Source: Aquilaria yunnanensis (Eukaryota > Streptophyta > Magnoliopsida > Malvales > Thymelaeaceae). From it: DNA of 64,000 nucleotides. The stretch covers positions 29,920,001 to 29,984,000 of the forward strand of contig CM077597.1 of NCBI GenBank assembly GCA_039654915.1, written 5' to 3'. Numbering within the stretch: the first letter of the stretch is position 1; the number at the start of each line of letters is the position of its first letter. Under the pieces are notes generated by a model. It worked only from the letters and a program-made list of their open reading frames with translations, had not been told where the DNA came from and ran no database searches. A program made the position numbers and the translations under genes. Below, piece by piece: positions 20,650-54,793 of the stretch.

Positions 20650-20656
20650 AGCGGCT

Positions 20657-24040: not shown

Positions 24041-24680
24041 TCGTAACCATGATATCCTTTTACCTTTTGGGACAACAAATAGACTCACATAATTATGGTT
24101 CATAAAAAGAAAAGATAATTATTATACATATATTTGGAAAGTGTATTTTTGTATTTAATAAATTTATATTCATTTGATTTGGAAAGTGAACATTGTTACT
24201 ATATTAAAAATGAAAAGTATGCCACAAGTGTATAATTTTCTATTATAATTGTCTATTTTTTATCTTGAAAATAATTAGAGCAAAAATGCTATTTATAGCC
24301 CTTTAATACACACCAATCACATATTAAAATCTATCATGTACACGCACATACATATATGGATGCACAAAAAAATGTCAACACAAACTTGTACGATTATATA
24401 CATAGTGTGGCAACGTCGGGTTTTCTGGAGTCGCCACCAATCCGTTTACCTAGGTCGATTGGTCACCTTAAAATTGGTCTGTGAGAGTTCGGGGATCGGG
24501 AGTACGGTTACGCTAAAACAATATTGTTATAGCGCCCAAAATTGGCACCTTAGTTGATTTTAATTTTGTTTTACTTTGCTTTTAAATAATTCTCAGTTAA
24601 TTTTCAAAATTAGAAATTTTAACTGGATTAGTCGAAATGTGGATTTTTAAATTAATTAATTTGTATGAAATCTTATACTT

Positions 24681-25521
24681 CCGAACCATGGACTCTGCCG
24701 AGTCATTTGGACACGGAAGATTTGATTCTGAACCATGGACTCTGCCGAGTCATTTGGACACGGAATTTGGTGAAATTTTAAATAATTTGATCCATATCGT
24801 AAATATGGATTTTTATCTTTGTATTTTAATTTATTTAACTAAAAGTTTGTATATTTTTCCAAGCCATGAATCCTATCGGATCACCCGGACATGGATTTTA
24901 ATCTAAAACCTAGTTCATAATTTGTCATAAATTTTGTGAAATTTGGAAATTTTATTATTTTTTTATTGTTTTGTATTTTGTTTTGTTTTTAAAATTTTAT
25001 TTTTTTATTCTTTTGTTTGAAAAATTTTATTGAATAATCTAAATCTATAAATTTAAATCAAATACTTTAGAAAAATAATTTTTTTTTTTTGTGAAATCAT
25101 TTGGTTATGATTGATTTTTTTATTTATTTATTTTTATTTAAAAGAAACAAAAAAAATTAAATTTTTGTTATTTAAATGAATTAAAAAGATAAGTTTAATT
25201 ATTTTGTTATTTAAAGAAATAATAATATATATTCCAAATAATGATAAAGGGTGTTGGCTTTTGTTGTAATAGAAATAATAAAATAAGAATAAAATATGGA
25301 AGTAAGATGAGCGTCGTCACCAAATAAAGTAAAGTTAATCGTTCACATAAAGAAAAATAAAATTGCATGAAAATAAATAAATAAATAAAGTGGGGGCATT
25401 TAACCATTGACATGAAAATAAAACGTACAATAAAGTAAATAATTGCAGGAGATTAGATAAATAAAAGAAAAATGGGGCTTTTTGCCGTCTACTTAAAAAT
25501 AAAAAGAGGTATAATCTTCCA

Positions 25522-25556
<35 letters not shown>

Positions 25557-26350
25557 GATAAAAGTTAGTTGTTAGTAAAGTTAGTTGTTAGTATAACAAA
25601 AATTAAATGGTTAGTGATAACAATAATAATAAAAGTTAGCAGTTAGTAAAGTTAGTTGTTAATATAACAAAAATTAAATGGTTAGTGATAACAATAATAA
25701 TAAAAGTTAGCAGTTAGTAAAGTTAGTTGTTAATATAACAAAAATTAAATGGTTAATGATTTGAATGGAATAATAATAACAATGATAACAATAATAATAA
25801 TAAACATATAAAGATTATTGTTAGTTCTTCAGAAATAATAAAAAGGTTAACGACTTGTATAAAAAAAAACTGGAGGATTAAAGAGAAATTATACCGTGAA
25901 TTTTAAATCGACTCTTAATCGAGCTGAGGATTTGCGAACGGATTTTTGCCCCTGATTCGATGTCGAATGATGGCGAACGATTTACTTACGACTGGTGGTG
26001 GTTTTGTTGAATGTCGTGGCGATTATTATTTTTTATTAGAAGTTTAGGATATAATTTGTTCTTCCAAACCGTGAATCTTGCCGGATCATTCGGATATGGA
26101 ATTTAATATCCAAGCCATGGATTCTAACCGAATCATTTAGACATGGATATGATCCGTCTTAGGATCTCGTTATTTAATTTTATTTTTAATAATTAATATT
26201 TTTAGCTAATATCCAAACCATGGATTCTAACTGAATCATTTGGACATGGATATAGACGTCCTTAAAATTTCGTTATTTAATTTTATTTTATTTTTAATAA
26301 TCTTAGTTAATATCCAAGCCATGGATTCTAACCGAATCATCTGGACATGG
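24681..26350 (-). repeat. Seven dispersed hairpin units in the left LTR
   Basis: Seven related units of about 37 bp lie near 24681, 24729, 24858, 26062, 26108, 26212 and 26311. Each has an inner stem of five bases around a short loop: GACTC/GAGTC in two units, GATTC/GAATC in others, with the usual outer context TCCAAGCCATG...TTTGGACATGGA. The stem changes are compensatory. The right LTR has the same units about 15.6 kb to the right. Confidence 0.7.
25525..25790. repeat. AAT microsatellite and about 70-bp tandem repeat in the left LTR
   Basis: An AAT run is followed by about three copies of a unit containing AAAAGTTAGCAGTTAGTAAAG and CAAAAATTAAATGGTTAGTG. The same array is in the right LTR from 41160, with a shorter AAT run. 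Confidence 0.85.
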
Positions 26351-26513
26351 ATATGATCCGTCTTAGGACAGATTTCTAATAATTTGATACACATTTAATG
26401 CATTACAATAATTAAAATTAAACTATAAAGATAAATAAATAAATAAATACATATCAAATCAAAAATCTCATGTTATTCTCATACGTCAATTTTATGACCA
26501 AAATTATATAGTC

Positions 26514-27383
26514 TTAACCTTTTTCTTCGTCTTTGATTTTCTTGAATATCTCAAAATCCAAGTTCTCTAAGGATTCGCTCAGGAAGTCAGTAGCGCAGAA
26601 TACAATCATGTGGTCCCCCATGGCTTTCAGGATCTCTTTTATGTCTTCAAAAATATCTGCGTATCTTTTTGCACATAGAAGTTCCAGTTCAATAGTCTTA
26701 TTCTGGTAGTATGGCATGGATACAATCAGTGAAGTAGTGCAAGACAAATAGACGGATGACAAGAAAAACAGGAAGATCACCACCAGGTACTGCTTGCACA
26801 CAATAATTCATACAACAACATAAAACTATAGAAATAAAAAGAAAGGGTCTCCATACTCTAGGGTTGAAGGCATGAGAGTATCCACAAACTAGGTATCTCT
26901 ATTAAAACTATATGCCACCGTATACAAATGATCTTTATGACTTTATAATCCTGTCACTAAATGATTTGCACAGGAAGTGCTCAATATATAACATTAAACC
27001 CGACTATTGGAAAACCCTCCTACATAGGTTGATCAGTTAACAGAGAAGTAGGAAACTTCTAGAAGACTATTTCATAAAGCAAAATACCGCAGGGAAAACA
27101 TAAAACAAAAATCATGAGTGAAATATTTCAGTCAGCAATACACAGTTATCATGGATAAACGTTCTATACTTATGGCCTTGACAGTTCTTAGTTCCAAGAA
27201 ATTGGAATGAATAGAGAGATACTTCCGAGGAAAATTGTTCAGCTCTAGCGTCTGCATCTGGAACAGTTGTATTGTTCTCAGCTCACTTCTGAAAGATGGA
27301 ATAGAGTTCTTGAAGAGATCAATCCAGGCGGTTTCGGTGGGGGTGGCTCTGTGAGGGTTATTGTAGACGAGGAGAACGCCCAC
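26514..27383 (-). pseudogene. Exon-like segments of an unrecognised gene inside the left LTR
   Basis: Two open frames on the element's sense strand. One at 27132-27383 begins just after a plausible acceptor (TACTACAG) and reads GDVGVLLVYNNPHRATPTET, then AWIDLFKNSIPSFR. The other, at 26514-26801, has 95 codons with a hydrophobic start (YLVVIFLFFLSSVYLSC) and a later charged part. Codon use and composition are less AT-rich than the LTR around them, which suggests captured host exons with introns. I do not recognise the parent gene. The same segments occur at 42148-43017 in the right LTR. Confidence 0.4.
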
Positions 27384-27889
27384 GTCACCTCTGTAGTAAG
27401 CGGATCATGAAATGCTACTATGAATCAGTGTTCATTTTTTTTACCATCTGCAAAACACAGAATGCAAAACACAGCAAACAGTAAAAACCACAAAAGGAAT
27501 AACCATACTGCAATATAGACTACCATATAAATAAGCAATTTAATTAATCAAGTAATCAGGAGCAGTAAAGAAAACTAACAATCAAGCAATCACTACAATC
27601 TATATTCATCAGATCAACACAACAATCGATATTTAATCAGATCCACACAACAATTCACATTAATCAGATCTAAGCAAAAATCAAAAAAATAAAATAAATA
27701 AAATAAATAAATAAAGAGTTTTGCTGTCAGTGACGTATATGCAAGAATAAAATATGTTGATGACTTAAATGAATAAAACAAAAAGAAATAGGGGCTAAAC
27801 AAGGATTTTAGCCCATATATATATATATATATATATAATAAAATAAAATAAAATAAAATTTTACTCGGTAAAAAATTGAAAACGCGTAA

Positions 27890-28745
27890 ACGCGTCTCTT
27901 TTTTTTTTGGCTGTCTTCGTCTTCTTCTTTTGTTCTTCCGGCGTCGGGACGGTGGCAGTGCTACAGCAAAAGGGGACAACAAGGCAACTGAGAGCAGGAG
28001 GGGCGTAGCTGAGCGCAGAGAGATGAGGCAGAACGCCCGGGAGGGAACACGGCGGAGGGGCTGGCGGGAGCACGACGGCGAGGTTGAGAGCAGTGGAATC
28101 ACGGTGACGTCGCGAGGTTGGCGAGCTGGGATAGTGGAGGTCAACGGCTAGCAGTGGGCTTGAGAAGAAAAGAGGGAGAGAATCGAGGAGAGAGGAGCTG
28201 CGAGAGGAGGGAGATGGGCAGAGGGTGCGCGTGAGAGACAACCTGCTGTCAGATTGTGGCGACGACTAGCGGGAGCTGGGGCAAATCTGATCGCAAACTG
28301 AGGTGAGGGAAGGACAAGGTCAGCAGCGGCAGGGGAAGGGAGTCGGAGACGCGACAGTCGCAAACGATAAGGGGGGGGGCGACAGCGACAAGGGTGTGAT
28401 ACAGTCGACGGAGGAGGGAGAAAGAAGGAAAAAGGCGGCCGGGCGTGTTGAGGTGAGATCGATTCTGGGAGACAAGAAAGATCAGATTCTGGAGAGTGAA
28501 GTCTAAGACTGGGAGAAGGATAGAGAGAGATCGAAGGAGAGAGAGAGAGTTCGCGAGAAGAGAGAGAGAGAAGGAGAAACAGAGAGGGAGAAGGAGAGAG
28601 GAGAGCAAAGGAGAGAGAGAGAGTTCGCCAGAGAAGTCAGAGAGGGAGAGGGAAAAGAAGAGAGAGGGAAGAGAAGTGAGAGAGGGTCAGAGATCAGATG
28701 TGTGTGTGAGCTGTGTGTGTGTCTGCGTTGAGCGAGAGGGAGAGA
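27890..28745 (-). promoter_or_regulatory. GC-rich, strand-asymmetric block of the left LTR
   Basis: A sharp island of G/A-rich plus strand (C/T-rich on the sense strand) inside a strongly AT-rich LTR, ending in long GA tracts (28500-28680). A TA microsatellite lies beside it at 27815-27838. Composition suggests the promoter and untranslated leader region of the LTR. The overlapping open frames on both strands, rich in Ser/Pro/Leu or Arg/Glu, are most simply a result of this composition. Confidence 0.4.
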
Positions 28746-29131
28746 ATAGATGAAGATTGAGAGTGCGAGAGAAGATAAGGGATAAGGGGAGGGGGAGCCT
28801 CTGTCGGCCACCTTTCCCATTTATTATTATTATTTTTGTTTTTTTCTTCTTTTTTTTTTTAATTAATTAATTAATTAATAATTTTTAATTTTAATTAATT
28901 TAGATTTAATTTATTACTATTATTTTTTTCTTCTTCTTCCCTTTTTTTTTTTTCCTTTAACATACAAACTAAAAAAGAATGCCCCTAAAATAATATTGCC
29001 ATTATTACTATTATTATTTTTTAATTAAGTAATCAATTAATTAAGTAATTTAATAAATTTTTTTTAAGTTTTAATTTTTTAATATAATTAATTTTTTTTA
29101 TTTTTAAGCCGGACGAAATTGGGTGTCAACA

Positions 29132-29148
29132 GCTGCCCCCCTTTGCAT
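29132..29148 (-). other. Polypurine tract of the large retrotransposon
   Basis: On the minus strand, GCAAAGGGGGGCAGC abuts the TGTTGACACCC start of the left LTR. Purine-rich tracts directly upstream of an LTR prime plus-strand DNA synthesis, which fixes the orientation. Confidence 0.85.
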
Positions 29149-29237
29149 GCTTCATGGGACATGATGTATGCAAAGTTAGTTACCAAATTTCGTCCAGCTT
29201 AGCTAGGCATTGAAAACCTTCTCGCCGCCTAAACTCT
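29149..29237. other. Spacer between polypurine tract and tandem array
   Basis: Short non-coding segment with a near repeat of the tract sequence (CATGCTTCATGGGAC, GCAAAGTTAGTTACC). Confidence 0.5.
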
Positions 29238-31163
29238 GAGGTTTAAGGAAAGGTCCTTAGAACCTCTAACGATAGGAAAGGTTCTATCGTTGTAAGATAG
29301 ACTGAATAATTGTTTGTTTGTTTGAGGTTAAGGAAAGGTCCTTAGAACCTCTAACGATAGGAAAGGTTCTATCGTTGTAAGATGGACTGAATGATTGATT
29401 GTTTGTTTGAGGTTTAAGGAAAGGTCCTTAGAACCTCTAACGATAGGAAAGGTTCTATCGTTGTAAGATGGACTGAATGGTTGATTGTTTGTTTGAGGTT
29501 TAAGGAAAGGTCCTTAGAACCTCTAACGATAGGAAAGGTTCTATCGTTGTAAGATGGACTGAATGGTTGATTGTTTGTTTGAGGTTAAGGAAAGGTCCTT
29601 AGAACCTCTAACAATAGGAAATGTTCTATCGTTGTAAGATGGACTGAATGGTTGATTGTTTGTTTGAGGTTAAGGAAAGGTCCTTAGAACCTCTAACGAT
29701 AGGAAAGGTTCTATCGTTGTAAGATGGACTGAATGATTGATTGTTTGTTTGAGGTTAAGGAAAGGTCCTTAGAACCTCTAACGATAGGAAAGGTTCTATC
29801 GTTGTAAGATGGACTGAATGATTGATTGTTTGTTTGAGGTTTAAGGAAAGGTCCTTAGAACCTCTAACGATAGGAAAGGTTCTATCGTTGTAAGATGGAC
29901 TGAATGATTGATTGTTTGTTTGAGGTTAAGGAAAGGTCCTTAGAACCTCTAACGATAGGAAAGGTTCTATCGTTGTAAGATGGACTGAATGATTGATTGT
30001 TTGTTTTAGGTTTAAGGAAAGGTCCTTAGAACCTCTAACGATAGGAAAGGTTCTATCGTTGTAAGATGGACTGAATGATTGATTGTTTGTTTTAGGTTAA
30101 GGAAAGGTCCTTAGAACCTCTAACGATAGGAAAGGTTCTATCGTTGTAAGATGGACTGAATGATTGATTGTTTGTTTGAGGCTAAGGAAAGGTCCTTAGA
30201 ACCTCTAACGATAGGAAAGGTTCTATCGTTGTAAGATGGACTGAATGATTGATTGTTTGTTTGAGGCTAAGGAAAGGTCCTTAGAACCTCTAACGATAGG
30301 AAAGGTTCTATCGTTGTAAGATGGACTGAATGATTGATTGTTTGTTTGAGGTTTAAGGAAAGGTCCTTAGAACCTCTAACGATAGGAAAGGTTCTATCGT
30401 TGTAAGATGGACTGAATGATTGATTGTTTGTTTGAGGTTAAGGAAAGGTCCTTAGAACCTCTAACGATAGGAAAGGTTCTATCGTTATAAGATGGAAAAG
30501 TCCTTAGAACCTCTAACGATAGGAAAGGTTCTATCGTTGTAAGATGGACTGAATGATTGATTGTTTGTTTGAGGTTAAGGAAAGTTCCTTAGAACCTCTA
30601 ACGATAGGAAAGGTTCTATCGTTGTAAGATAGACTGAATGATTGATTGTTTGTTTGAGATTTAAGGAAAGGTCCTTAGAACCTCTAACGATAGGAAAGGT
30701 TCTATCGTTGTAAGATGAACTGAATGAATGATTGTTTGTTTGAGGTTTAAGGAAAGGTCCTTAGAACCTCTAACGATAGGAAAGGTTCTATCGTTGTAAG
30801 ATGGACTGAATGATTGATTGTTTGTTTGAGGTTTAAGGAAAGGTCCTTAGAACCTCTAACGATAGGAAAGGTTCTATCGTTGTAAGATGGACTGAATGAT
30901 TGATTGTTTGTTTGAGGTTTAAGGAAAGGTACTTAGAACCTCTAACGATAGGAAAGGTTCTATCGTTGTAAGATGGACTGAATGATTGATTGTTTGTTTG
31001 AGGTTTAAGGAAAGGTCCTTAGAACCTCTAACGATAGGAAATGTTCTATCGTTGTAAGATGGACTGAATGATTGATTGTTTGTTTGAGGTTTAAGGAAAG
31101 ATCCTTAGAACCTCTAACGATAGGAAAGGTTCTATCGTTGTAAAATGGACTGAATGATTGATT
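29238..31163. repeat. 86-bp tandem array, about 23 copies
   Basis: The unit of 84-87 bp runs GAGGTTTAAGGAAAGGTCC, then TTAGAACCTCTAACGATAGG, AAAGGTTCTATCGTTGTAAG and ATGGACTGAATGATTGATTG before TTTGTTT. I count 23 copies of the GTTCTATCGTT core, with one unit truncated near 30490. Each unit contains two nested inverted repeats, CGATAG...CTATCG and AGAACC...GGTTCT, and AAGGAAAGGTCCTT. Tandem arrays just inside the 3' end are known in Tat/Ogre elements and can seed satellite DNA. Confidence 0.97.
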
Positions 31164-31345
31164 GTTCTCGAGGCAAAGGTTCCATCCTTAAAACCTCAGA
31201 TTGATTGATTGATTTCGAGGCAAAGTTTCCATCCTTAAAACCCCGATGATGAAAATTGATTGTTTTTGAGGCAAAGGTTCCATCCTTAAAACCCCGATGA
31301 AAATTGATTTTGAGGCTAAGGAGCTTTCCTTAGGACCTCGAGCGA
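31164..31345. repeat. Short diverged tandem units next to the main array
   Basis: Three or four units of about 50 bp, with GAGGCAAAGGTTCCATCC and TTAAAACCCCGATGA, look like relatives of the 86-bp repeat. Confidence 0.7.
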
Positions 31346-31856
31346 AATTTATATGAAAACAATTGAAATTGGAATAATTTTCTTCGAAAGTATGAATTTT
31401 CATAATAGGTGAGTGCAAAAATTTGAACTTCGATAAGATGAGTGAATCTTGATGATGACAATAACACTGACAAATTATGTAAAGGGAACGGATGTTTGGA
31501 ATCAATATTCAAGGTTCATCTAATATTTTCTTCAGTAAATATAGATTCCCTTGTAAGATATGTCATCCGAATAAGGTTAAAACTTAACTACCCCAAAATG
31601 TTATGCCTAGTAGATCTAATAGGATGCGTCTCAAGAGTAACAAAAATTACTCTTTACTCAACCATTCCAATCTAAAGGCATTGTCCTATGGTTCTAATAT
31701 CAGCATCGACGAAACTATCTTATAAAAAAAAGAAATTCCTTGAAAATAAAAACTGAAACGCGAAAGAAAATGCTGATAATAAAACTAAAGGACAAGAAAA
31801 ACGGATCAGATCGCTTCTTTCTTCCACAATACTTCAACAGGGTGAGTAGAGAACCA
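31346..31856. other. Sequence downstream of the LOG gene
   Basis: Non-coding on present evidence. It probably includes the 3' UTR of the LOG gene on the minus strand. Small open frames lack recognisable domains. Confidence 0.4.
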
Positions 31857-32486
31857 TTATGGGAGTGAACTGGTCGGGAAAGACTGTCGTGTCCAGTCTA
31901 TCTGAATCATTGCTGGATCTGGTTCAGGAACAAAAGCTTGTATTTTATCTAGCAATTCTTCAACAGTTGTTGCGGATATTATGATTCGCCGTGCCACTCT
32001 TGATATGAAATTCTTCTGCATAGCATAATCCATAAAAGCTATCAGACCTGTAAAGAAATTGTTAACATTTAAAAGCCCAATGGGTTTCTTATGCAAATTA
32101 AGTTGGGCCATGGAAGCAATTTGAAAGACTTCTCCCAATGTGCCAAAACCACCTGGTAGAGCGATAAAAGCATCAGCATTTAAAAGCATTTGTAACACAC
32201 GCTCTTGCAAATTTTTAACCACTAATTCTTCTCCAATCGTGCCCCCAGAAACAAATTTCAAAGGTCCAGGGATGATGCCCAAAACTTGACTTCCTCCTAA
32301 AGATGCTGCTGATGCTACACCTCCCATTAATCCGACACTACCTCCTCCATAAACTAAATGTATTTTTCGCTCAGCTAATACTCTACCCAAATGGTTGGCT
32401 GCCTTTAAATACTCTTCATCTTTTCCAGGAAAAGCCCCAGAAAATACACAAATACTTCGGGATTTACGAGTTGGGGTTTTCTCCAT
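31857..32486 (-). CDS. LOG: LOG-type cytokinin riboside 5'-monophosphate phosphoribohydrolase, retrotransposon cargo
   Basis: The protein has 209 residues starting MEKTPTRKSR; I chose this ATG because it matches the normal LOG start and length (about 210-220), although the frame extends 29 codons upstream. Motifs: VFSGAFPGKDEEY at the start, the nucleotide-binding loop VYGGGSVGLMG, ERVLQM with the conserved active-site Arg, and the signature PGGFGTLGE, which keeps the catalytic final Glu but replaces the Glu before it with Gly. The family cleaves cytokinin nucleotides to free active cytokinin plus ribose 5-phosphate, in cytosol and nucleus. Plant LOG genes normally have several introns; this copy has none, so it likely arose from mRNA. 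It is intact and lies between the cysteine-rich genes and the 3' LTR. A TATA box lies just upstream. Activity cannot be judged from sequence. Confidence 0.9.
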   Translation of the reverse strand: MEKTPTRKSRSICVFSGAFPGKDEEYLKAANHLGRVLAERKIHLVYGGGSVGLMGGVASAASLGGSQVLGIIPGPLKFVSGGTIGEELVVKNLQERVLQMLLNADAFIALPGGFGTLGEVFQIASMAQLNLHKKPIGLLNVNNFFTGLIAFMDYAMQKNFISRVARRIIISATTVEELLDKIQAFVPEPDPAMIQIDWTRQSFPTSSLP

Positions 32487-32516
32487 TCCTATCCTTATCC
32501 TTGTGAGAAAAGAGGA

Positions 32517-32527
32517 TATATTTATAG
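32517..32527 (-). promoter_or_regulatory. TATA box of the cargo LOG gene
   Basis: The minus strand reads CTATAAATATA about 30-40 bases upstream of the LOG ATG. A start 30 bases downstream would give a very short leader, so either the leader is only a few bases or another start is used. Confidence 0.5.
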
Positions 32528-32564
32528 AGATGAAGAGATAAGGCAATAATTTTATTTTCAAGAG

Positions 32565-33035
32565 TGGATACATTATTGCCAGCTATACACAGTAGTCACG
32601 AGTATGACTCTGGTCAGGTATGGGTACACTATCGTTAAAAGAGGAGGAAAATTTTCAAAATAGCTGCTAGCATGTACAGTAGTCACTACTGTAGCTTACG
32701 TCAGGAGTAGGTACGTGATTGTTGGAAGGGAAGGAAAATTTCAAAAGTGGCAGCTATATACAGTAGTCCGTGTCAGGAGTGGGTACATTATTGCCAAAGG
32801 GGAGGAAAATTTCAAAAGCGACAGCTAGCACGTATAGTAATCGTAACTATGGCTCATGTCAGGAGTGGATACATTATCGCTGAAAGGGGAGGAAAATTTC
32901 AAAAGTGACAGCTAGTACGTACAGTAATCGTGACTTTGGTTCACGTCAGGAGTGGATACATTATTACCAAAAGGGGAGGAAAATTTCAAAAGCGACAGCT
33001 AGCACGTACAGTAATCGTGACTTTGATCCTCGTCT
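32565..33035 (-). promoter_or_regulatory. About 90-bp tandem array upstream of LOG
   Basis: Five to six diverged units of about 85-95 bp, each with GGAGGAAAATTTCAAAAG, CAGCTAGCACGTACAGTA and GTCAGGAGTGGATACATTA. Read on the sense strand they carry TGACGT (plus-strand ACGTCA at 32698-32703 and 32943-32948) and TACGTRC motifs, which resemble as-1/bZIP binding sites. The array lies directly upstream of the LOG TATA box, in the position of a repeated enhancer. One further unit lies at 33710-33800, upstream of the neighbouring gene. Confidence 0.6.
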
Positions 33036-33073
33036 TCCACTGGCTTTGCGTCCAGTAATGGCTTCAATGCTTT

Positions 33074-33622
33074 CTATGAATCGGTGATTTGCATCTCATC
33101 TAGCTTTCTCACAAACTGGCAAACAGGGTCGTTTAGGGTCAGATTCCCAAGACTGTAACGATCTCGTTCTTTTTGGAAAATTATCCATAATCCAACAACC
33201 TCAAATTGCACTATTCCGCAAGAATGCGCTTCAAGAACCTCTCGAATATCTTCTAGAGATTCCTTACGCAAGCCATTCTTAATGAATCTTATTCTATCAT
33301 TACGATTTCTGGTGATCACTCCTGGAGCACGATATTTATTGCCGCAAATCCACCATCCACAATTATGACAAACGCCTAGCCTCTTTGCTCTTCTTTTTTT
33401 GGCATAAGCGCTTTCACCAAAGCCGGGCATACGGGGAAAGAACGCTTCGGGAACTTCACCAGCTGAACGAACCTTAGCTTCAATTAGCCACCGCACATTA
33501 TCAGGAATGCCTTTGTGCATAAATAATCTGAATCGTTCACATCTAGCTTGATAAATCTTTTTAAGAACATTTATTGGGAAGGAAGGAAAATACTTTCGTA
33601 GGGCGGAAAGAGAAGACTCCAT
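33074..33622 (-). CDS. Cysteine-rich basic protein, copy B (flexivirus-NABP-like), retrotransposon cargo
   Basis: The protein has 182 residues from MESSLSALRK. This ATG matches the start of copy A; the frame extends five codons upstream. It is about 68% identical to copy A with no gaps (123 of 182 in my alignment). Residues 71-89 read SAYAKKRRAKRLGVCHNCG: a basic, NLS-like stretch followed by C85 and C88, then C93. The fourth cysteine of copy A (C97) is Tyr here. Farther on come PGVI and IRFIKNG (residues 111-117). The basic-plus-cysteine core followed by PG and FI...G resembles the cysteine-rich nucleic-acid-binding proteins of carlaviruses and related flexiviruses, some of which suppress RNA silencing. 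The last 65 residues are unlike anything I recognise. Family membership is inference. Confidence 0.6.
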   Translation of the reverse strand: MESSLSALRKYFPSFPINVLKKIYQARCERFRLFMHKGIPDNVRWLIEAKVRSAGEVPEAFFPRMPGFGESAYAKKRRAKRLGVCHNCGWWICGNKYRAPGVITRNRNDRIRFIKNGLRKESLEDIREVLEAHSCGIVQFEVVGLWIIFQKERDRYSLGNLTLNDPVCQFVRKLDEMQITDS

Positions 33623-33680
33623 TGATAAAGGAGGCAAAGAAAGAAATTAGTGATTGTAGGAAACGAAAATAACTAACACA

Positions 33681-33689
33681 TATTTATAG
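33681..33689 (-). promoter_or_regulatory. TATA box of cysteine-rich gene B
   Basis: The minus strand reads CACTATAAATATGTG about 60 bases upstream of the ATG at 33622, giving a leader of about 30 bases. The motif is very similar to the TATA box of the LOG gene. Confidence 0.55.
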
Positions 33690-33699
33690 TGATGAAAGG

Positions 33700-33805
33700 G
33701 ATAATGTGTTAATTACACTTACAAAAGCAAGTACATTATTGTCAAAAGAAAAGACAAATGACAGCTTATATGTACAGCAATCATGACTGTGGCTCTCATC
33801 TTCCA
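33700..33805 (-). promoter_or_regulatory. Single promoter-repeat unit upstream of gene B
   Basis: A diverged copy of the unit at 32565-33035 (AAGCAAGTACATTATTGTC, GACAGCTTATATGTACAGCA, ATCATGACTGTGGCTC). It lies between the stop of copy A and the TATA box of copy B, as the longer array does for LOG. Confidence 0.55.
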
Positions 33806-33838
33806 CTAGTTTATGTCTAGTAACGGCTTCAATGCCTT

Positions 33839-34387
33839 CTATAAGTCGGGGATTTGCTTTCCATTCAGTTTTCTTACAAGCTGGCAAACAGGGTCATTTA
33901 CAGTCAGATTCCCGGGACTGTAACGGTTTCGTTCTTCATGAAAAATGCTCCATAAACCAAGAAGTTCACGTTGCACAGATCCACAAGAATGCGTCTCAAG
34001 AGTCAATTGGATATCATCCAACGAGTCCTTACTCAGGCCATTCTTAATGAATCGTATTTTATCTTCTCGATTATCAGAGATCATCCCTAAAGAACGACAT
34101 TTAGTATTACAAGTCCACCGTCCACATTTATGGCAGACTTGTAACCTTTTCGCTCTTCGCTTTTTGGCATAAGAGCTTTTGCCTATACCAGGCATGTGAG
34201 ACACAAATGCCTCTAGGATTTCACCTGCCAAACGGACCTTGGCTTCGATTAACCACCGCACATCTTCAGGGATTCCTTTATGCATCAGAGCTCTTAATCG
34301 TTCACAGCGAACTTGGTAGATCTTTTTGAGGATGTTCATTGGGAGAGAAGGAAAATATTTTCGCAAGGCAGAAAAAGTAGGATCCAT
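33839..34387 (-). CDS. Cysteine-rich basic protein, copy A (flexivirus-NABP-like), retrotransposon cargo
   Basis: The protein has 182 residues starting MDPTFSALRKYFPS. The core at residues 71-89 reads SSYAKKRRAKRLQVCHKCG, followed by C93 and C97, giving a C-x2-C-x4-C-x3-C pattern that could bind one zinc ion. A basic stretch (K75-R81) precedes it and could serve as a nuclear signal or bind nucleic acid. A conserved IRFIKNG follows at 111-117. The same layout is seen in the small cysteine-rich proteins of carlaviruses and relatives, but cysteine spacing here is shorter, so the relation is tentative. Copies A and B have exactly the same length, with no indels in 546 coding bases, while the DNA between them has changed in length; this suggests selection on the protein. 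No strong TATA box is seen for this copy. Confidence 0.6.
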   Translation of the reverse strand: MDPTFSALRKYFPSLPMNILKKIYQVRCERLRALMHKGIPEDVRWLIEAKVRLAGEILEAFVSHMPGIGKSSYAKKRRAKRLQVCHKCGRWTCNTKCRSLGMISDNREDKIRFIKNGLSKDSLDDIQLTLETHSCGSVQRELLGLWSIFHEERNRYSPGNLTVNDPVCQLVRKLNGKQIPDL

Positions 34388-34540
34388 TTTCTAGGAGAAA
34401 GTAAAAGAAAGGAGGGAGGAAATGATCAGTTATTATGGGCAACTGAGAGAACCGACTTGAGAGTCACGGAGTACCGTATCCGCCGCTTAACCGGAAAAGT
34501 GAATCCTACTTTATTTTGATGTGATAGATATTCCATCCAG
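34388..34540 (-). promoter_or_regulatory. Upstream region of cysteine-rich gene A
   Basis: The minus strand has a C/T-rich leader (CCTCCCTCCTTTCTTTTAC) just before the ATG and a weak AT-rich motif (CCATAATAACTG) 45-60 bases upstream. No promoter-repeat unit is seen. It might instead be expressed from the LTR. Confidence 0.25.
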
Positions 34541-34544
34541 CTGA

Positions 34545-34895
34545 CGTCGATTCAGTCCTTGATTATTGAATCCATTGTCCGCTTTTGACGAATTTTCAAC
34601 GACAATATTTCTTGATGTCTGCCTTATCTTTGACCACAGCTATCTCTTATCTTGGATGCTGCTAAGCTGGCATCAATCCTATCCTTCCAGGTGTAGCCTC
34701 GATTATTGAATCAATTGTCAGGCTTTTGACAATATTGTCTACTTTATATTTTTTTTTTGATATCTGCCTTATCCTTGGCTATAGCTATCTCTTATCTTGG
34801 ATACTACTAGCTGGCGTCAATCCTTTCCTTCCAAGTGTAGCCTCGATTATTGAATCGGTAGCCAAGCTTTTGACAATATTGTCTACTTTATCCTT
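34545..34895. repeat. About 155-bp imperfect tandem duplication
   Basis: Two and a bit copies of a segment containing CTCGATTATTGAATC, GCTTTTGACAATATTGTC, ATCTGCCTTATC and AGCTATCTCTTATCTTGGAT. It is non-coding as far as I can tell. Confidence 0.8.
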
Positions 34896-35835
34896 GAATT
34901 CCTGATGCGGGTTGGTCCCGCATATTAGCTGTGTATCCAGTGATAGATTGGTAAGAGCTGATGACATTGAGATCTCAGCTTATACTGCTGTAACTGTGCT
35001 GTAAATGTGATTCCCGTTTGGTCCTTGTTATGTAAAGGCTATGTATGCATGATATGAAATGCATGAATGCAGAGCATGTGTAACTAATGGCTTTTTTTTG
35101 TATGGATCTAGTTCTTTATGTCTTTGTTTTACTGGATCCTCTTTGTGATGGCCTTCTTGAACTATCATTGAATCTCTTTATGATTCCCAGCTCTTGTCCA
35201 TTGCCTCAAAAGCCCAACTCTTTTCAAAGTCCGCTTTCTTTGACTTGTTCTTGAATTTTGGCCTCAATTTCTTTAATGTTCGCTCACCTCATACTTTATA
35301 TCTCTTCAAATACTCATCCCTTGTCATGGATTTCATACTATCAAAGGCTTAACTTTCAATGTTTCTTTGCCCATTTTCTTGTGGCCGTGCTGACACTTAC
35401 TTACCCCCATGTTACAGTCCGAATGATTGCTCTTCCTTAGACTCAGGTTCTGATCCATAAGACTTGCCCCCTTGTCTATTGAGCTTCTTTCTTGGCAGTA
35501 CTCTTCTTACGCTTCGTAGAGACTACTTTGCCCCCCTGAATATGGTATTTATGTGGATAAAAGATATCGTCTCGCCTTTGATTTAACAGAAGGTCGAGCA
35601 TTTCTAGACCTTTGTGATGGCACTTGATCGTAAATTTCTCTTACAAGAACCATATCTTATTAAAGAAAGACTCAAGCTATCTCCTCACTTTTAAGTCTAC
35701 ATACATTAATGAATAATGATTTGGCCTTAAAGAAAAACTTTCATCAATTTGCAAAGCTTGAAAAAGTAATTTACGGTCTTTGTTTTTAATTAAAATATCC
35801 TGCCATTCTTCCCTTTCCAACTCGAAGACATAAAC
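34896..35835. other. Internal retrotransposon sequence without recognisable genes
   Basis: No gag, protease, reverse transcriptase or integrase motif is seen on the sense strand. Two tracts resembling the polypurine tract occur on the minus strand, at 35461-35475 (ACAAGGGGGCAAGTC) and 35526-35540 (TTCAGGGGGGCAAAG). Confidence 0.5.
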
Positions 35836-36480
35836 TGTGCAAGGCAATAAGGTAGAAACATGCTTAACAAGGATAGCCTTTTAGCTGAATGACGATGGTA
35901 TCAAGAGGTAAGTGTTAGGTCCGAGGAACGTTAAGTTTGAGTGGTGTGAAAGAAGGGTCTTTTAATACTACTCGTGAGCAGTATTAAATAAGGTAGAAAT
36001 ATGATTCACAATGATAGTCTTTTGACTGAATGAGGATTTTAGGTCTGAGGAAAGTTAAGTTTAAGTGGTGTGAAAGAATGGTCTTTTAATACTACTCGTG
36101 AGCAGTATTAAACAAGGTAGAAACATGATTCACAATGATAGTCTTTTAACTGAATGAGGATGTTCGGTTTGAGAAAAGTTAAATTTAAGTGGTGTGGAAG
36201 AATGGTCTTTTAATACTACTCGTGAGCAGTATTAAACAAGGTAGAAACATGATTCACAATGATAGTCTTTTAACTGAATGAGGATTTTAGGTCTGAGGAA
36301 AGTTAAGTTTAAGTAGTGTGAAAGAATGGTCTTTTAATACTACTCGTGAGCAGTATTAAACAAGGTAGAAACATGATTCACAATGATAGTCTTTTAACTG
36401 AATGAGGATGTTCGGTTTGAGAAAAGTCAAATTTAAGTGGTGTGGAAGAATGGTCTTTTAATACTACTCGTGAGCAAATT
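35836..36480. repeat. 124-bp tandem array, about five copies
   Basis: The units contain AAGGTAGAAACATGATTCAC, AATGATAGTCTTTTAACTGA, GGTGTGAAAGAATGGTC and a near-perfect palindrome, AATACTACTCGTGAGCAGT plus ATT. Successive copies of the palindrome begin near 35964, 36087, 36211, 36335 and 36460. Confidence 0.95.
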
Positions 36481-37739
36481 TGATTATGGTGAAAAACTCA
36501 ATAGTGATGACCTCAACTTGCCACTTTTTCCAGAAAGTTAGACCTCATCTATTGTCCCCAACTATTGTGATCTTTATGCATGCTTGGTTTGAGGGTTGCT
36601 TTCGTGTTCTAAACCGCCTTTGCAGGTTTTCAGTTTAGAATCCATAGCTCACTTGTTTTCTTTTTTTTCTTTTGCTCTAGTTTGAGCCTTTTTTTTTTCT
36701 TTTTTGTTTTGTTTTTTTTTTGTTTCCCTTTTTTTTTTTTGTGAGCTATGGTGATGACATACTTGATAACTCTCTTGAAGTGAGATGACTCAAGTGGCCT
36801 TACTTGCTCGTGCTTGTTCTCAGTCCTTTTTGGTTTTGAATTTTCCCTTGTTGTCTTTTGATGGAAGGGATGAATTTCTCTTTTCGGAGTTTGTGTTGCA
36901 AAGAACTGAGATTCTTTTTTTTTTTTGTATTGAGCGTTTGTGAGAATTGGAAGGCCACTGAAGTCATTTAATATGAGAGCTACCTTGTTTGGAAGCTAAC
37001 CCCAGACTTCTTGCAAGGATGTTGATAACCACTATGAATTCTTTTTTTTGAGAGTTGGGGTGCAACATATGAAATCCTTCTTACTAGATTTGACAGCACT
37101 TTCAAGATCGCCACTATTAAATCTCCCTTAACTTTTTATTTTCACCCACGAGTAGTATCATTTTCAAAGTAAAGTGTGATAGCAATAATGGATAGTATAA
37201 TGGAAAGGAGTGAGAGATGGATGTAAAAACGGAATTTTTGGTAAGAAGTGGTAGAATGTGTAGGTGTAATAATTGAATTTTTGGTAAAAATTGGTAGAAT
37301 GTGTAGAAGTAATAATGAGATTAAAAAGTGGTAGAATGCACACGCAACATCTTTTTGTTAGAGAACAAAAAGAATTACCGGTTGTCGAAAAGTAAAGTGT
37401 GATGGCTATAATGGATAGTATAATGGCAAAGAGTGTAAAAATGGAAAGTAGCAGAATGCACGCATCACATCTTTTTGTTGTACCAGAAAAAGAATAGCAG
37501 GTGTCCATTTAACAAAGACTACACCCTAGATTCCGGACTAAATCTAGGAGATTTTTACTATTAAATTACTTTGTCAAGCTTTCAAAGATGCAAGCTTAGT
37601 AAAAGGATTCCCTGTTATTCAAAAGTGTGTGTGAACTGTTAGATCGGATCTGACTTAGAGTCCTTCCAAAATCAATGTAATTCCAGCTCGAAATCTTCAC
37701 TTTCAATTACCAATCACATCATGGCCTAGGAATTTAAAC
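36481..37739. other. Internal sequence with poly-T tracts
   Basis: T-rich runs lie near 36655-36740, 36914-36925 and 37041. A duplicated segment (GGTAGAATG, AGTGTGATRGCWATAATGG) occurs near 37160-37460. There is no recognisable pol coding on either strand. Confidence 0.5.
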
Positions 37740-38963
37740 TCGACCAACTATTGGACCTTGAGTTTCAGTGCTACACAATTTTCAATTAAATGCCCGATTG
37801 AACATTTTGTATTTGGCGTTTGGGTCATTCCAACTTGGAAGAGGAGGCTACTTGATCTTTGCTACCGTTGGTATGGGTGGTAGCAGGTTTGTAACTTGTG
37901 AAAATTGAATCGACTTGAGTAGCATTTCTTCCCATGAGTGGTATGTGGCACTGATGAGGGAGCCTTGAAGATTACAGTCTCAATAGGATATCCTTTCACT
38001 TGTAACTTGAGTGGTATTGGATCATTGGACTTGGAGATGATGTTTTGGATAGCTCCGGTTCTTTCATTGAAACATCCTTCAATTGAAGAATCGACCAGCT
38101 TTTCTGTTTTGATTCCAAATTCGATCTTTTCTCCAGATAAGACCACATTTGAAAAGCTACTTGAAGTGTTCCCAACTAGTTTTTCATAAAATGGTCTATT
38201 TAATGCTTGGGTAAACAGGGTGATCAATTCTCTTTCTATCATAGATGGTTGAACTTGTGCGGCTAAGTGTCTCCACCTTTATGCGTATTCCTTAAAGGTC
38301 TCTTGTTCCTTCTTCTCTATATTTTGGAGAATTTGGTGATCTAGGGGTAAGTCTATAACATGCTCACAGTTACTGATTGAGAGCTTAAACGAGGTCATTC
38401 CAGGCTTTGATGTTTCTCAGACCTTGACTTAGATACCATTGTAGCGCTGACTTTGTAAGATTTTCTTGAAAAAGTGCTATCAACACTTTCTCGTCTCTTG
38501 TGAGTGGTTGTATTTTCCTTAGAAACAGCGTAATATAATTGATGGGATAACTTGTTCCATCATATTTCACAAAGTCAGGTACCTTAAAGTATGAGGGAAT
38601 CACAACATCTGGTATCAAGCAAAGATTGTTCATCAAAAGAGATAAAGTGCCTCTTTCAATGGTCCGCAGTCTCTTTTCTATGATCTCGAGTTTTTTTAGT
38701 ATTCTCTTCTTCTTTAAGCAGGAGCTTCTTTTCTTCAAAAATTGGACTGTGCCTTAGATGAATGATATCAGATGGACCTGAGTCATGAAAGAGCTTCTCT
38801 TGAACTGAGACCTGTTCTGAGTCAATTGGGGAGGATAGGTTAGATCTTGTGGGTCATTGACGGGGACTTGGGTCGCTAACTCCATTAACTGTTTCATTTG
38901 CTCAGGCATACTTTCTATATTGGACTTCATATCTATGAGACATCCTTTGGTTTGTTCTGCCAT
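37740..38963 (-). pseudogene. Tat/Ogre-type gag, broken
   Basis: The minus strand starts MAEQTKG at 38963 and is stopped at 38754-38756, then resumes in the same frame with IPDVVIPSYFKVPDFVKYDG and ALQWYLSQGLRNIKAWNDLV, and is stopped again at 38385. After a frameshift the frame at 37862-38242 continues RPFYEKLVGNTSSSFSNVVL. Farther on comes a degenerate tail, IENCVALKLKVQ. These blocks are those of the retrotransposon gag protein of the Tat/Ogre branch of Ty3/gypsy. Gag forms the particle that holds the RNA. Two stops and at least one frameshift mean it is not functional. Confidence 0.85.
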
Positions 38964-40020
38964 TAATCTTATTTGGAGCCGAGCTGGATATCGGTGTTGA
39001 TGGCCAATTTTACCGTTTCTAAAGTGAGATTCATTTTATTAAACTTTATATGCAATTGATTGATGTGATGGATGTATGTAATACAAAATGAGATTATGTT
39101 TTTATCAGACTTTGTATGCATGTATTTAATGTAATGGATGCGTGCAATACAAAATGAGATTATGTTTTATCAGACTTTGTATGCACGTGATTGATGTAAT
39201 GGATGCATGCAATACAAAATGAGATTATGTTTTTATCAGACTTTGTATGCACATGATTGATGTAATGGATGCATGCAATAAGTGAGTTTGATTATCAACT
39301 ATCGTGGAACTTCGAGATTTGTAGTTGTCATTTAGAAAGATCAAAAGTTATTACAATTTGGTGCGTGGTTTTGATGCATGACGAAAAATTGTACAAAACA
39401 GAAGTATAACAAAAGAATAACAAGGTTAACAACGAGTTAGATATCAATTAATAACACATGAACTATTACGAAAAGAAGACTGAGCCATAAATATAAAACA
39501 CAAAGAAAACCAAGGATAAGGTAACAAAATTGGCATAACAATAACATGCTTATAGTGTTGGTGAAATGGTAGAAATTCTATGGTCAGTTCTATGGTTAAG
39601 TGGGGAATTCTATATGCATAAGGTGGCTTATCAAAAAGGCCAGGGATAGTTCCCGAATCCCGTCACTAAATTATAGTGACAGCCCGATTCCTTACCCTCT
39701 AGGGTTAATGTAAGGAATGGATTAATTCGAGTCGTAGCTTTTCGTGGGCCCATGCAGAGACTAACCGTCTCAGAAGGCAATACACTACTTTGCTACTTTG
39801 AAACCGGTGAAGGCTTGGAGACCGTGGCCTCACAAGGACAGCAACACCAATTCCGCTTAGAAAGAATCGTGTTTGATTTAAGGAAGCTCGGGTATAGAGC
39901 TTCATTTTGTGAATGCATTATGCATGTTTAGAATAAGTAAATATAACATATAAATTCACATAAAAATAAACAAAACAGAACAAAATAAATCAACTTTTAG
40001 GCTTGACTCACTAACCAGGT
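38964..40020 (-). other. 5' untranslated region of the large retrotransposon
   Basis: Lies between the primer site and gag. It contains three to four tandem copies of a unit of about 78 bp (39040-39285) with GGATGCATGCAATACAAAAT and TTATCAGACTTTGTATGCA. A 66-codon open frame at 39705-39905 has no recognised domain. Confidence 0.6.
39040..39285. repeat. About 78-bp tandem repeat in the leader
   Basis: Units share TGATGTAATGGATGCATGCA, AATGAGATTATGTTTTTATC and AGACTTTGTATGCA, with a few base changes. Confidence 0.9.
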
Positions 40021-40040
40021 TCCCCAGTGGAGTCGCCAAG
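40021..40040 (-). other. Primer-binding site of the large retrotransposon
   Basis: The minus strand reads CTTGGCGACTCCACTGGGGA, one base inside the ...TTGCCACA end of the right LTR. TGGCGACTCC...GGGGA-type primer sites are usual for Tat/Ogre elements (generally assigned to tRNA-Arg). This identifies the right LTR as the 5' LTR. Confidence 0.75.
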
Positions 40041-41158
40041 CTGTGGCAACGTCGGGTTTTCTGGAGTCGCCACCAATCCGTTTACCTAGGTCGATTGGTC
40101 ACCTTAAAATTGGTCTGCGAGAGTTCGGGGATCGGGAGTACGGTTACGCTAAAACAATATTGTTATAGCGCCCAAAATTGGCACCTTAGTTGATTTTAAT
40201 TTTGTTTTACTTTGCTTTTAAATAATTCTCAGTTAATTTTCAAAATTAGAAATTTTAACTGGATTAGTCGAAATGTGGATTTTTAAATTAATTAATTTGT
40301 ATGAAATCTTATACTTCCGAACCATGGACTCTGCCGAGTCATTTGGACACGGAAGATTTGATTCCGAACCATGGACTCTGCCGAGTCATTTGGACACGGA
40401 ATTTGGTGAAATTTTAAATAATTTGATCCATATCGTAAATATGGATTTTTATCTTTGTATTTTAATTTATTTAACTAAAAGTTTGTATATTTTTCCAAGC
40501 CATGAATCCTATCGGATCACCCGGACATGGATTTTAATCTAAAACCTAGTTCATAATTTGTCATAAATTTTGTGAAATTTGGAAATTTTATTATTTTTTT
40601 ATTGTTTTGTATTTTGTTTTGTTTTTAAAATTTTATTTTTTTATTCTTTTGTTTGAAAAATTTTATTGAATAATCTAAATCTATAAATTTAAATCAAATA
40701 CTTTAGAAAAATAATTTTTTTTTTTTTGTGAAATCATTTGGTTATGATTGATTTTTTTATTTATTTATTTTTATTTAAAAGAAACAAAAAAAATTAAATT
40801 TTTGTTATTTAAATGAATTAAAAAGATAAGTTTAATTATTTTGTTATTTAAAGAAATAATAATATATATTCCAAATAATGATAAAGGGTGTTGGCTTTTG
40901 TTGTAATAGAAATAATAAAATAAGAATAAAATATGGAAGTAAGATGAGCGTCGTCACCAAATAAAGTAAAGTTAATCGTTCACATAAAGAAAAATAAAAT
41001 TGCATGAAAATAAATAAATAAATAAAGTGGGGGCATTTAACCATTGACATGAAAATAAAACGTACAATAAAGTAAATAATTGCAGGAGATTAGATAAATA
41101 AAAGAAAAATGGGGCTTTTTGCCGTCTACTTAAAAATAAAAAGAGGTATAATCTTCCA

Positions 41159-41189
<31 letters not shown>

Positions 41190-42147
41190 AGATAAAAGTT
41201 AGTTGTTAGTAAAGTTAGTTGTTAGTATAACAAAAATTAAATGGTTAGTGATAACAATAATAATAAAAGTTAGCAGTTAGTAAAGTTAGTTGTTAATATA
41301 ACAAAAATTAAATGGTTAGTGATAACAATAATAATAAAAGTTAGCAGTTAGTAAAGTTAGTTGTTAATATAACAAAAATTAAATGGTTAATGATTTGAAT
41401 GGAATAATAATAACAATGATAACAATAATAATAATAAACATATAAAGATTATTGTTAGTTCTTCAGAAATAATAAAAAGGTTAACGACTTGTATAAAAAA
41501 AAACTGGAGGATTAAAGAGAAATTATACCGTGAATTTTGAATCGACTCTTAATCGAGCTGAGGATTTGCGAACGGATTTTTGCCCCTGATTCGATGTCGA
41601 ATGATGGCGAACGATTTACTTACGACTGGTGGTGGTTTTGTTGAATGTCGTGGCGATTATTATTTTTTATTAGAAGTTTAGGATATAATTTGTTCTTCCA
41701 AACCGTGAATCTTGCCGGATCATTCGGATATGGAATTTAATATCCAAGCCATGGATTCTAACCGAATCATTTAGACATGGATATGATCCGTCTTAGGATC
41801 TCGTTATTTAATTTTATTTTTAATAATTAATATTTTTAGCTAATATCCAAACCATGGATTCTAACCGAATCATTTGGACATGGATATAGACGTCCTTAAA
41901 ATTTCGTTATTTAATTTTATTTTATTTTTAATAATCTTAGTTAATATCCAAGCCATGGATTCTAACCGAATCATCTGGACATGGATATGATCCGTCTTAG
42001 GACAGATTTCTAATAATTTGATACACATTTAATGCATTACGATAATTAAAATTAAACTAGAAAGATAAATAAATAAATAAATACATATCAAATCAAAAAT
42101 CTCATGTTATTCTCATACGTCAATTTTATGACCAAAATTATATAGTC

Positions 42148-43017: not shown

Positions 43018-43447
43018 GTCACCTCTGTAGTAAGCGGATCATGAAATGCTACTATGAATCAGTGTTCATTTTTTTTACCATCTGCAAAACACAGAATGCA
43101 AAACACAGAAAGCAGTAAAAACCACAAAAGGAATAACCATACTGCAGTATAGACTACCGTATAAATAAGCAATTTAATTAATCAAGTAATCAGGAGCAGT
43201 AAAGAAAACTAACAATCAAGCAATCACTACAATCTATATTCATCAGATCAACACAACAATCGATATTTAATCAGATCCACACAACAATTCACATTAATCA
43301 GATCTAAGCAAAAATCAAAAAAATAAAATAAATAAAATAAATAAATAAAGAGTTTTGCTGTCAGTGACGTATATGCAAGAATAAAATATGTTGATGACTT
43401 AAATGAATAAAACAAAAAGAAATAGGGGCTAAACAAGGATTTTAGCC

Positions 43448-43478
<31 letters not shown>

Positions 43479-43527
43479 AAATAAAATAAAATAAAATTTT
43501 ACTCGGTAAAAAATTGAAAACGCGTAA

Positions 43528-52276: not shown

Positions 52277-52281
52277 CATCA

Positions 52282-52362
52282 TAGAGTTCTTTTTCATGTT
52301 CCCTCTACACAAAAGAAAACTAAACTTGAGCTAATACATTCTGATGTTTATGGTCCCATCGA
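52282..52362 (+). pseudogene. copia integrase fragment between insertions
   Basis: Reads RVLFHVPSTQ, then KLELIHSDVYGPI, the start of the integrase catalytic core (HSDVxGP, with its conserved Asp). It is continuous with the fragment resuming at 54794. Confidence 0.85.
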
Positions 52363-54788: not shown

Positions 54789-54793
54789 ATCGA

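What the first reader, a model, noticed from the sequence alone, without database searches (positions are those of the whole stretch)
31857..34387. Retrotransposon carrying an intact LOG cytokinin gene and two virus-like cysteine-rich genes
Inside one young, 20.4-kb LTR retrotransposon, in sense orientation between a dead gag and the 3' LTR, lie three uninterrupted genes: two 182-codon cysteine-rich paralogues and an intronless 209-codon LOG. Additional ORFs in Tat/Ogre elements are known as a class, but I do not recall this combination. LOG releases active cytokinin, and cysteine-rich proteins of the suggested viral type have been reported to suppress silencing or provoke cell proliferation. 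A mobile unit that can push cell division and perhaps blunt silencing would be new. Intactness beside dead gag and absent pol is directly visible; the function is inference.
Basis: partly seen in the sequence, partly recalled or inferred. Interest (0 to 1): 0.92.

Follow-up and report, generated by a model that had tools for sequence, protein, structure and literature searches.

The report
Retrotransposon carrying cytokinin and virus-like genes
A plant jumping-gene family, in which no integrase was found beside the module in any of 20 sampled sister copies, carries and keeps under purifying selection one gene predicted to activate the growth hormone cytokinin and two to four genes resembling plant-virus cysteine-rich proteins, which would likely help it spread by promoting cell division and weakening gene silencing.

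Summary
A complete 20,369-bp LTR element (24406-44774, minus strand; CATAG duplication; LTRs 99.3% identical) carries two cysteine-rich ORFs (Pfam Viral_NABP/Carla_C4) and a LONELY GUY (LOG) ORF in sense, beside a broken gag and no detected pol. In the same 842-Mb genome 20 of 20 other copies fetched (of 149 listed) hold the module in the same order: NABP genes, then LOG; LOG is stop-free in 17 of 20. Across 21 copies pN/pS is 0.24 for LOG, 0.12 for NABP2, 0.35 for NABP1-type genes; wrong-frame controls are higher. New here: TATAAATA stands 40-48 bp before LOG in 20 of 20 copies, so LOG likely has its own promoter; LOG relatives elsewhere mostly end in an EAR-like LxLxL tail (99 of 120; 0 of 120 cellular LOG1/3-type), which this family lacks; a NABP gene also follows an integrase ORF in another, probably plant, contig. 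Prior art: a LOG (YgdH) domain in Citrus and poplar Gypsy elements is in print; virus-like genes in such elements, and the pairing, I did not find in my searches. Function is inferred: no expression or activity data.

The parts
24406..44774 (-). complete LTR retrotransposon, 20,369 bp, flanked by CATAG
40042..44774 (-). 5' LTR
24406..29131 (-). 3' LTR, 99.30% identical to the 5' LTR
24401..24405 (.). target-site duplication CATAG (second copy 44775-44779)
40021..40038 (-). primer-binding site TGGCGACTCCACTGGGGA (tRNA-Arg type: recalled)
29132..29144 (-). purine-rich tract before the 3' LTR
37865..38753 (-). broken gag, two pieces
   Evidence: an open 601-codon gag in a sister copy matches PF03732
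33839..34387 (-). NABP2, 182 codons, carlavirus-type cysteine-rich protein
33074..33622 (-). NABP1, 182 codons, paralogue (68% identical), fourth Cys replaced by Tyr
31857..32486 (-). LOG, 209 codons, PGGxGTxxE motif kept, EAR-like tail absent
32519..32527 (-). CTATAAATA, 41 bp before the LOG start
   Evidence: TATAAATA kept in 20 of 20 sister copies
33681..33689 (-). CTATAAATA, 67 bp before the NABP1 start
34426..34498 (-). leader of NABP2, shared with L001 (62 of 74 columns)
33784..33841 (-). stop codon and trailer of NABP2, shared with L001 (51 of 60 columns)
29157..31304 (-). 85/86-bp tandem repeat array beside the 3' LTR
35789..36532 (-). 124-bp tandem repeat array

Best explanation
This is a dispersed, multi-copy plant LTR retrotransposon family whose maintained cargo, two to four carlavirus-type cysteine-rich (NABP) genes plus one LOG gene, likely acts on the host cell: the LOG is predicted to release active cytokinin, and the cysteine-rich proteins are predicted to bind nucleic acids and blunt silencing. 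Shown: one complete element; the same module, order and strand in 20 of 20 sister copies fetched; purifying selection on each gene type; a predicted LOG fold and the catalytic motif; viral family matches; a TATA box kept before LOG in all copies examined. Inferred: LOG, and the NABP1 genes, are transcribed from their own promoters; reverse transcriptase and integrase come in trans from a relative; extra cytokinin and weaker silencing together keep cells dividing and the element expressed in meristem cells that lead to the germ line. It would work like T-DNA carrying a cytokinin gene (recalled), in a vertically inherited element.
For: Family matches above gathering scores; predicted LOG model, pLDDT 85, best match Arabidopsis At2g37210 E 2.5e-21; 49 of 50 columns conserved in both element-type and cellular LOGs kept; module in 20 of 20 copies; pN/pS LOG 0.238, NABP2 0.123, NABP1-type 0.350, wrong frames 0.50-2.26; TATAAATA 40 or 48 bp before LOG in 20 of 20 copies; broken gag shared by window, L023 and L027 while their accessory genes stay mostly open; carlavirus p12 is an activator and silencing suppressor (PMC7588395, abstract and opening seen).
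Against: No transcript, protein or activity was seen. LOG is broken in 3 of 20 copies and NABP2 in 2 of 20. NABP1 has lost a cysteine. The family lacks the tail that most relatives share. NABP2 has no TATA box in 20 of 20 copies. The NABP match to viruses is remote: Pfam E about 1e-5 to 1e-7, fold matches weak. Copies were picked by NABP2 similarity. One integrase query is a weak test for absent pol.
Confidence: 0.5

Rival explanations
1. The accessory proteins serve the element's own replication rather than host growth: NABPs act as RNA chaperone, packaging or nuclear-import factors, and LOG removes a nucleotide signal or precursor that hampers copying or triggers immunity.
For: All three gene types are under constraint; NABP has a basic motif beside a cysteine motif; retroviral accessory proteins have been proposed as models for such ORFs (PMC7264820 part 2); LOG belongs to the SLOG fold group (PF18306 match).
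Against: LOG catalytic residues are those of cytokinin-activating enzymes; no known replication role for LOG; own promoters would uncouple them from the genomic RNA.
Confidence: 0.25
2. Hitchhikers: captured genes that are only carried along; low pN/pS reflects recent descent from a few masters rather than selection for function.
For: The copies listed are 96-100% identical in NABP2; some genes carry stops; first-stage capture of host genes by LTR elements is known (PMC7264820 part 1).
Against: Mean silent divergence among copies is 0.06-0.09 per site, enough for the ratio to be informative, and each gene type has a low ratio; NABP1 and NABP2 have stayed constrained since duplication.
Confidence: 0.12
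3. The genes are host or virus genes domesticated by the plant, and the LTRs merely surround them.
For: ORFs are intact while gag is broken.
Against: Perfect target duplication and one LTR pair; the module recurs at many loci on eight large contigs, as mobile DNA does.
Confidence: 0.05

Closest known systems
YgdH/LOG-bearing Ty3/gypsy elements of Citrus and Populus (PMC9289625 section 12 read; Steinbauerova 2011 cited there, not held)
   Same: A LOG-type domain carried by Gypsy-type elements
   Different: That passage reports no NABP genes, promoters, selection test or tail; whether their LOG is the same lineage was not tested
Carlavirus cysteine-rich protein, e.g. chrysanthemum virus B p12 (PMC7588395 abstract and opening; PMC9650830 passages)
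   Same: Pfam Carla_C4/Viral_NABP match, basic motif beside a cysteine motif
   Different: 182 instead of about 100-140 residues; multiplied inside a retrotransposon; remote similarity
Grande gene23 and Retand antisense ORFs (PMC7264820 parts 1-2; PMC11963269 abstract)
   Same: Accessory genes in a long 3' region with tandem repeats; own promoter reported for gene23
   Different: Those are antisense and of other families; here sense, with known enzymatic and viral kin
Phalaenopsis Gypsy elements with an AlkB-type RNA demethylase (PMC9289625)
   Same: Giant Gypsy element with a captured enzyme thought to act on host control
   Different: Different gene; those elements keep gag-pol
Agrobacterium T-DNA with ipt (recalled)
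   Same: Works alike: mobile DNA bringing a cytokinin gene with its own promoter
   Different: Unrelated; ipt synthesises, LOG activates; no bacterium

Membership tests
LTR retrotransposon | LTR pair, target duplication, PBS, purine tract | tested here: met
Ty3/gypsy Tat/Ogre lineage | reverse transcriptase / second RNase H phylogeny | not testable with these tools
   no pol found in the window
Ty3/gypsy Tat/Ogre lineage | tRNA-Arg PBS and Tat-like gag | tested here: inconclusive
   PBS read, tRNA match recalled; sister gag matches PF03732 only generally
Non-autonomous gag-only LTR element | pol missing across the family | tested here: inconclusive
   no match to the L001 integrase in 20 of 20 stretches; frames before NABP2 read by eye; one query only, gag often outside the stretch
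LOG phosphoribohydrolase | PF03641, PGGxGTxxE, Arg, Rossmann-type LOG fold | tested here: met
LOG phosphoribohydrolase | cytokinin ribotide hydrolysis | not testable with these tools
   needs an assay
EAR-tailed LOG group seen here | C-terminal LxLxL | tested here: not met
   absent in window and 20 of 20 copies; present in 99 of 120 relatives
Flexivirus NABP / carlavirus cysteine-rich protein | PF05515 / PF01623 above gathering score | tested here: met
   both NABPs; 91 and 89 of 97 relatives at E <= 0.01
Flexivirus NABP / carlavirus cysteine-rich protein | four-cysteine motif behind a basic motif | tested here: inconclusive
   complete in NABP2, fourth Cys lost in NABP1
Flexivirus NABP / carlavirus cysteine-rich protein | silencing suppression, nucleic-acid binding | not testable with these tools
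   needs an assay

The most novel reading that the evidence does not exclude
A retrotransposon lineage that has dropped its own copying enzymes and become a carrier of host-manipulation genes: a hormone-activating enzyme and virus-type silencing suppressors, expressed from internal promoters and selected as a kit, a heritable counterpart of T-DNA that enlarges the pool of dividing cells in which it is copied. In sister lineages the enzyme gained an EAR tail that would recruit TOPLESS co-repressors, and the virus-type gene has moved between flexiviruses and at least two retrotransposon lineages.
Probability: 0.33. Interest if true: 0.93.

Novelty: new variant of a known kind. Interest (0 to 1): 0.8.

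Why it matters
Accessory genes of plant LTR elements are mostly of unknown use. Here three gene types show measurable purifying selection in many copies, and two of the families have known biochemistry, so what such an element does to its host becomes directly testable: cytokinin output and silencing suppression. It would also show a plant-virus gene family living on as a maintained retrotransposon gene.

Tried and rejected
Chance ORFs: rejected. Hitchhiking as the main reading: disfavoured by pN/pS. Solved structures like NABP: none at E <= 0.001 (best 0.33 by sequence; 4.8 by fold). Viral-contig scans with NABP2, the NABP alignment and the L001 integrase gave no relative. Leader RNA structure: no excess stability (z -0.47 and -0.73). 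A hairpin after the NABP stops has one compensated pair in three sequences and is not significant (175 of 500 shuffles as high).

Literature: ten counted searches of an open-access library. led to the papers on accessory domains; two searches gave no paper; one search gave two unrelated papers; (7 of 7; 12 of 740 listed; 15 of 16; 8 of 8) I saw listings and then read passages of a few. 'Not found in print' rests on these alone. Steinbauerova 2011 is not held and may list more.

Against my reading: LOG is broken in 3 of 20 sister copies, NABP2 in 2 of 20, and 3 of the 33 NABP1-type ORFs carry a stop; 17 of 33 NABP1-type ORFs and 20 of 20 NABP2 genes lack TATAAATA. LOG's first wrong frame gives 0.50, so that control is not at 1. 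At 65 columns conserved at 90% the window LOG departs at 4, within the range 0-6 of its relatives. In the 45-row tree the tail needs 4 changes.

Rows dropped: one search left out three partial NABP1-type or NABP pieces (one of L011, two of L019); one search examined 33 such ORFs, leaving out two of these three. The NABP alignment A3 used 94 of the 120 listed relatives plus L001 and the two window genes. LOG trees used 39 of 120 element-type and 19 of 120 cellular proteins, then 30 and 14, chosen by hand. The tail control is LOG1/3-type only; of the LOG8 chain I saw residues up to 206 of 216. Only 20 of the 149 other copies listed were fetched.
Full report
WHAT IS THERE. The window holds one complete LTR element on the minus strand, 24406-44774. 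The LTRs (4,726 and 4,733 bp) are 99.30% identical with 20 mismatches, K about 0.0042; at 1.3e-8 per site and year (recalled) that is about 0.16 million years, several times more at tree rates. The ends are TG...CA with a CATAG duplication. TGGCGACTCCACTGGGGA follows the 5' LTR and a purine tract precedes the 3' LTR. I read this PBS as tRNA-Arg type from memory; PMC9289625 gives that type for Ogre elements (passage). The internal region holds broken gag pieces, a 124-bp and an 85/86-bp tandem array and three intact sense ORFs. No pol domain was found among the internal pieces scanned with Pfam.

THE LOG. PF03641 at 3.4e-30. The predicted model (pLDDT 85) matches the Arabidopsis At2g37210 structure with E 2.5e-21 and TM 0.93 on the target. 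Of 50 columns at least 95% conserved in both 116 element-type and 95 cellular LOGs, the window departs at one, W126M; PGGxGTxxE and Arg96 are kept. Element-type and cellular LOG1/3-type proteins fall on opposite sides of a 100/100 branch in a tree of 45; in a tree of 62 with AtLOG8 and two bacterial LOGs the element-type branch has SH-aLRT 97. Among the 120 hits listed I count by hand 35 entries of Reevesia pubescens on 16 named chromosomes, as expected of a dispersed repeat. That the LOGs of other species lie in elements is inferred from this clade and dispersal; I did not see their LTRs.

THE TAIL. 99 of 120 element-type hits have LxLxL within the last 12 residues (such as KRKLDLTLRL); 0 of 120 cellular LOG1/3-type proteins do. 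This looks like an EAR motif, which recruits TOPLESS (recalled). The window copy and 20 of 20 sister copies lack it: this family has lost it, or its LOG never had it.

THE CYSTEINE-RICH GENES. Both match Viral_NABP and Carla_C4 above gathering scores; 91 and 89 of 97 aligned members do so at E <= 0.01. One search found 254 relatives; among the 120 listed, the five that name a plant are from Populus and Xanthoceras. C85-x2-C88-x4-C93-x3-C97 behind a basic stretch is at least 90% conserved; NABP1 has Tyr at 97. A fold search with a moderate model (pLDDT 71, pTM 0.40) scored weakly, best E 0.074 and no match at E <= 0.001, but 24 of its first 29 viral matches are named proteins of flexiviruses (my reading of the names; four are unnamed, one is a closterovirus protein). 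In a tree of 65, NABP1 pairs with P0012 and NABP2 with P0001, and the four form one 100/97 group: the duplication is older than this copy. NABP and LOG hits also share three contig lengths (2128, 4511, 8723) among 40 and 20 lengths of 2-15 kb, where 0.16 are expected, which suggests that the two genes sit together in other sources; I could not see those contigs.

OTHER COPIES. The genome search answered once: 842 Mb, 8,314 first-look candidates, the best 150 scored (the window's own and 149 others), all 96-100% identical, 148 without stops. I fetched 20 of the 149, each with about 4 kb before and 6 kb after the NABP2 start. All 20 hold NABP2, one to three further NABP genes (a few partial or with stops), then LOG, in one order and strand; LOG is stop-free in 17 (stops in L015, L024, L025); none of the stretches matches the L001 integrase. 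For six copies I took 3 kb further upstream. One has an open 601-codon gag frame (L033; PF03732 E 6e-12); L031, L032 and L035 have split or shorter gag frames; L034 has the same broken pieces as the window; L030 has a 1,000-codon frame that looks like a nested Copia insertion (recalled). The window's broken gag pieces recur at 98-100% identity in two of 20 copies, L023 and L027. The simplest reading is that this sub-family was copied after gag broke while its accessory genes stayed mostly open (NABP2 of L027 has one stop).

SELECTION. Over the window and 20 copies, mean pairwise pN/pS is 0.238 for LOG (codon bootstrap 0.162-0.327), 0.123 for NABP2 (0.055-0.240) and 0.350 for 33 NABP1-type ORFs (0.257-0.467); the same sets in wrong frames give 0.50 and 2.26, 1.29 and 1.67, 0.98 and 1.19. 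Copies were chosen among the best NABP2 protein matches, so NABP2's value is biased low; LOG was not selected on. NABP1 against NABP2 gives 0.19-0.24, NABP2 against L001 0.13-0.23; NABP1-NABP2 differences by codon position, 45/23/72, depart from equality (p 2.5e-6).

CONTROL SIGNALS. CTATAAATA occurs seven times in the window on both strands; in the element's internal region it occurs twice, both on the sense strand, 67 bp before NABP1 and 41 bp before LOG. TATAAATA lies 40 or 48 bp before LOG in 20 of 20 copies and before 16 of 33 NABP1-type ORFs (by my sorting, 15 of 16 that are at least 87% identical to NABP1 and 1 of 17 others), but before 0 of 20 NABP2 genes; the background, these sites included, is 0.028 per 110 bases. 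So LOG and NABP1 likely have their own promoters, as reported for Grande gene23 (PMC7264820 part 2), while NABP2 would depend on the LTR transcript or splicing.

A SECOND ELEMENT TYPE. L001 (3,330 bp) lies in a record titled as a bacterial MAG but encodes a retroelement integrase (PF00665, PF17921) and, about 0.2 kb behind its stop, a NABP 70% identical to NABP2. I take it for plant contamination. The integrase looks Athila-like to me (recalled, not tested). Leader and trailer of its NABP match the window's better than four-fold silent sites do: 62 of 74 and 51 of 60 columns against 57% of 47 sites. No LOG is on that contig. So the viral-type gene may serve more than one retrotransposon lineage, in the place where env-like genes sit.

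PRIOR ART. PMC9289625 (sections 12 and 17 read) reports the YgdH domain, otherwise found in LOG proteins, in Gypsy consensuses of two Citrus species, in line with Steinbauerova 2011, and in poplar when a filter is off. PMC3136472 (passages) reports a betaflexivirus replicase-like sequence as the one plus-strand case. PMC11963269 (abstract and one passage) does not mention LOG, cytokinin or NABP. I found no report of carlavirus-type genes in LTR elements, nor of the pair, in my searches.

MECHANISM. Shown: anatomy, recurrence, constraint, family membership by sequence, LOG fold by prediction. Inferred: LOG releases free cytokinin; NABPs act as CVB p12 does, a nuclear transcriptional activator and cytoplasmic silencing suppressor (PMC7588395; [quoted passage not shown] together they would favour dividing cells and expression of the element. 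pol in trans is inferred from its absence where I looked.

Noticed in passing
L001 (DAIEQH010000041.1) 194-2347: An integrase ORF followed in sense by a NABP ORF in a record filed as a bacterial MAG: probably plant contamination in a reference genome set, and a sign that NABP genes ride on a second retrotransposon lineage.
   Followed up: partly
LOG relatives P0121-P0240: 99 of 120 end in an LxLxL (EAR-like) tail that none of 120 cellular LOG1/3-type proteins has.
   Followed up: partly
window 33784-33841, 33019-33076 and L001 2345-2403: A conserved stretch after each NABP stop codon can form a short hairpin with one compensated pair; three sequences are too few to decide.
   Followed up: partly
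window 34388-34416: A pyrimidine-rich run ending in AG stands just before the NABP2 start, like a splice acceptor; the AG is not seen at that place in L001.
   Followed up: no
window 14211-16295: Three neighbouring plus-strand ORFs resembling a hAT-type transposase (recalled, not searched).
   Followed up: no
window 20600-21418: ORF resembling a membrane-anchored RING E3 ligase of the host (recalled, not searched).
   Followed up: no
window 50298-55405: ORFs resembling Copia polyprotein pieces (recalled, not searched).
   Followed up: no
L010-L029: NABP gene number per copy varies from two to four, with extra paralogues about 72-78% identical to NABP1 in many copies: repeated duplication inside the element.
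   Followed up: partly
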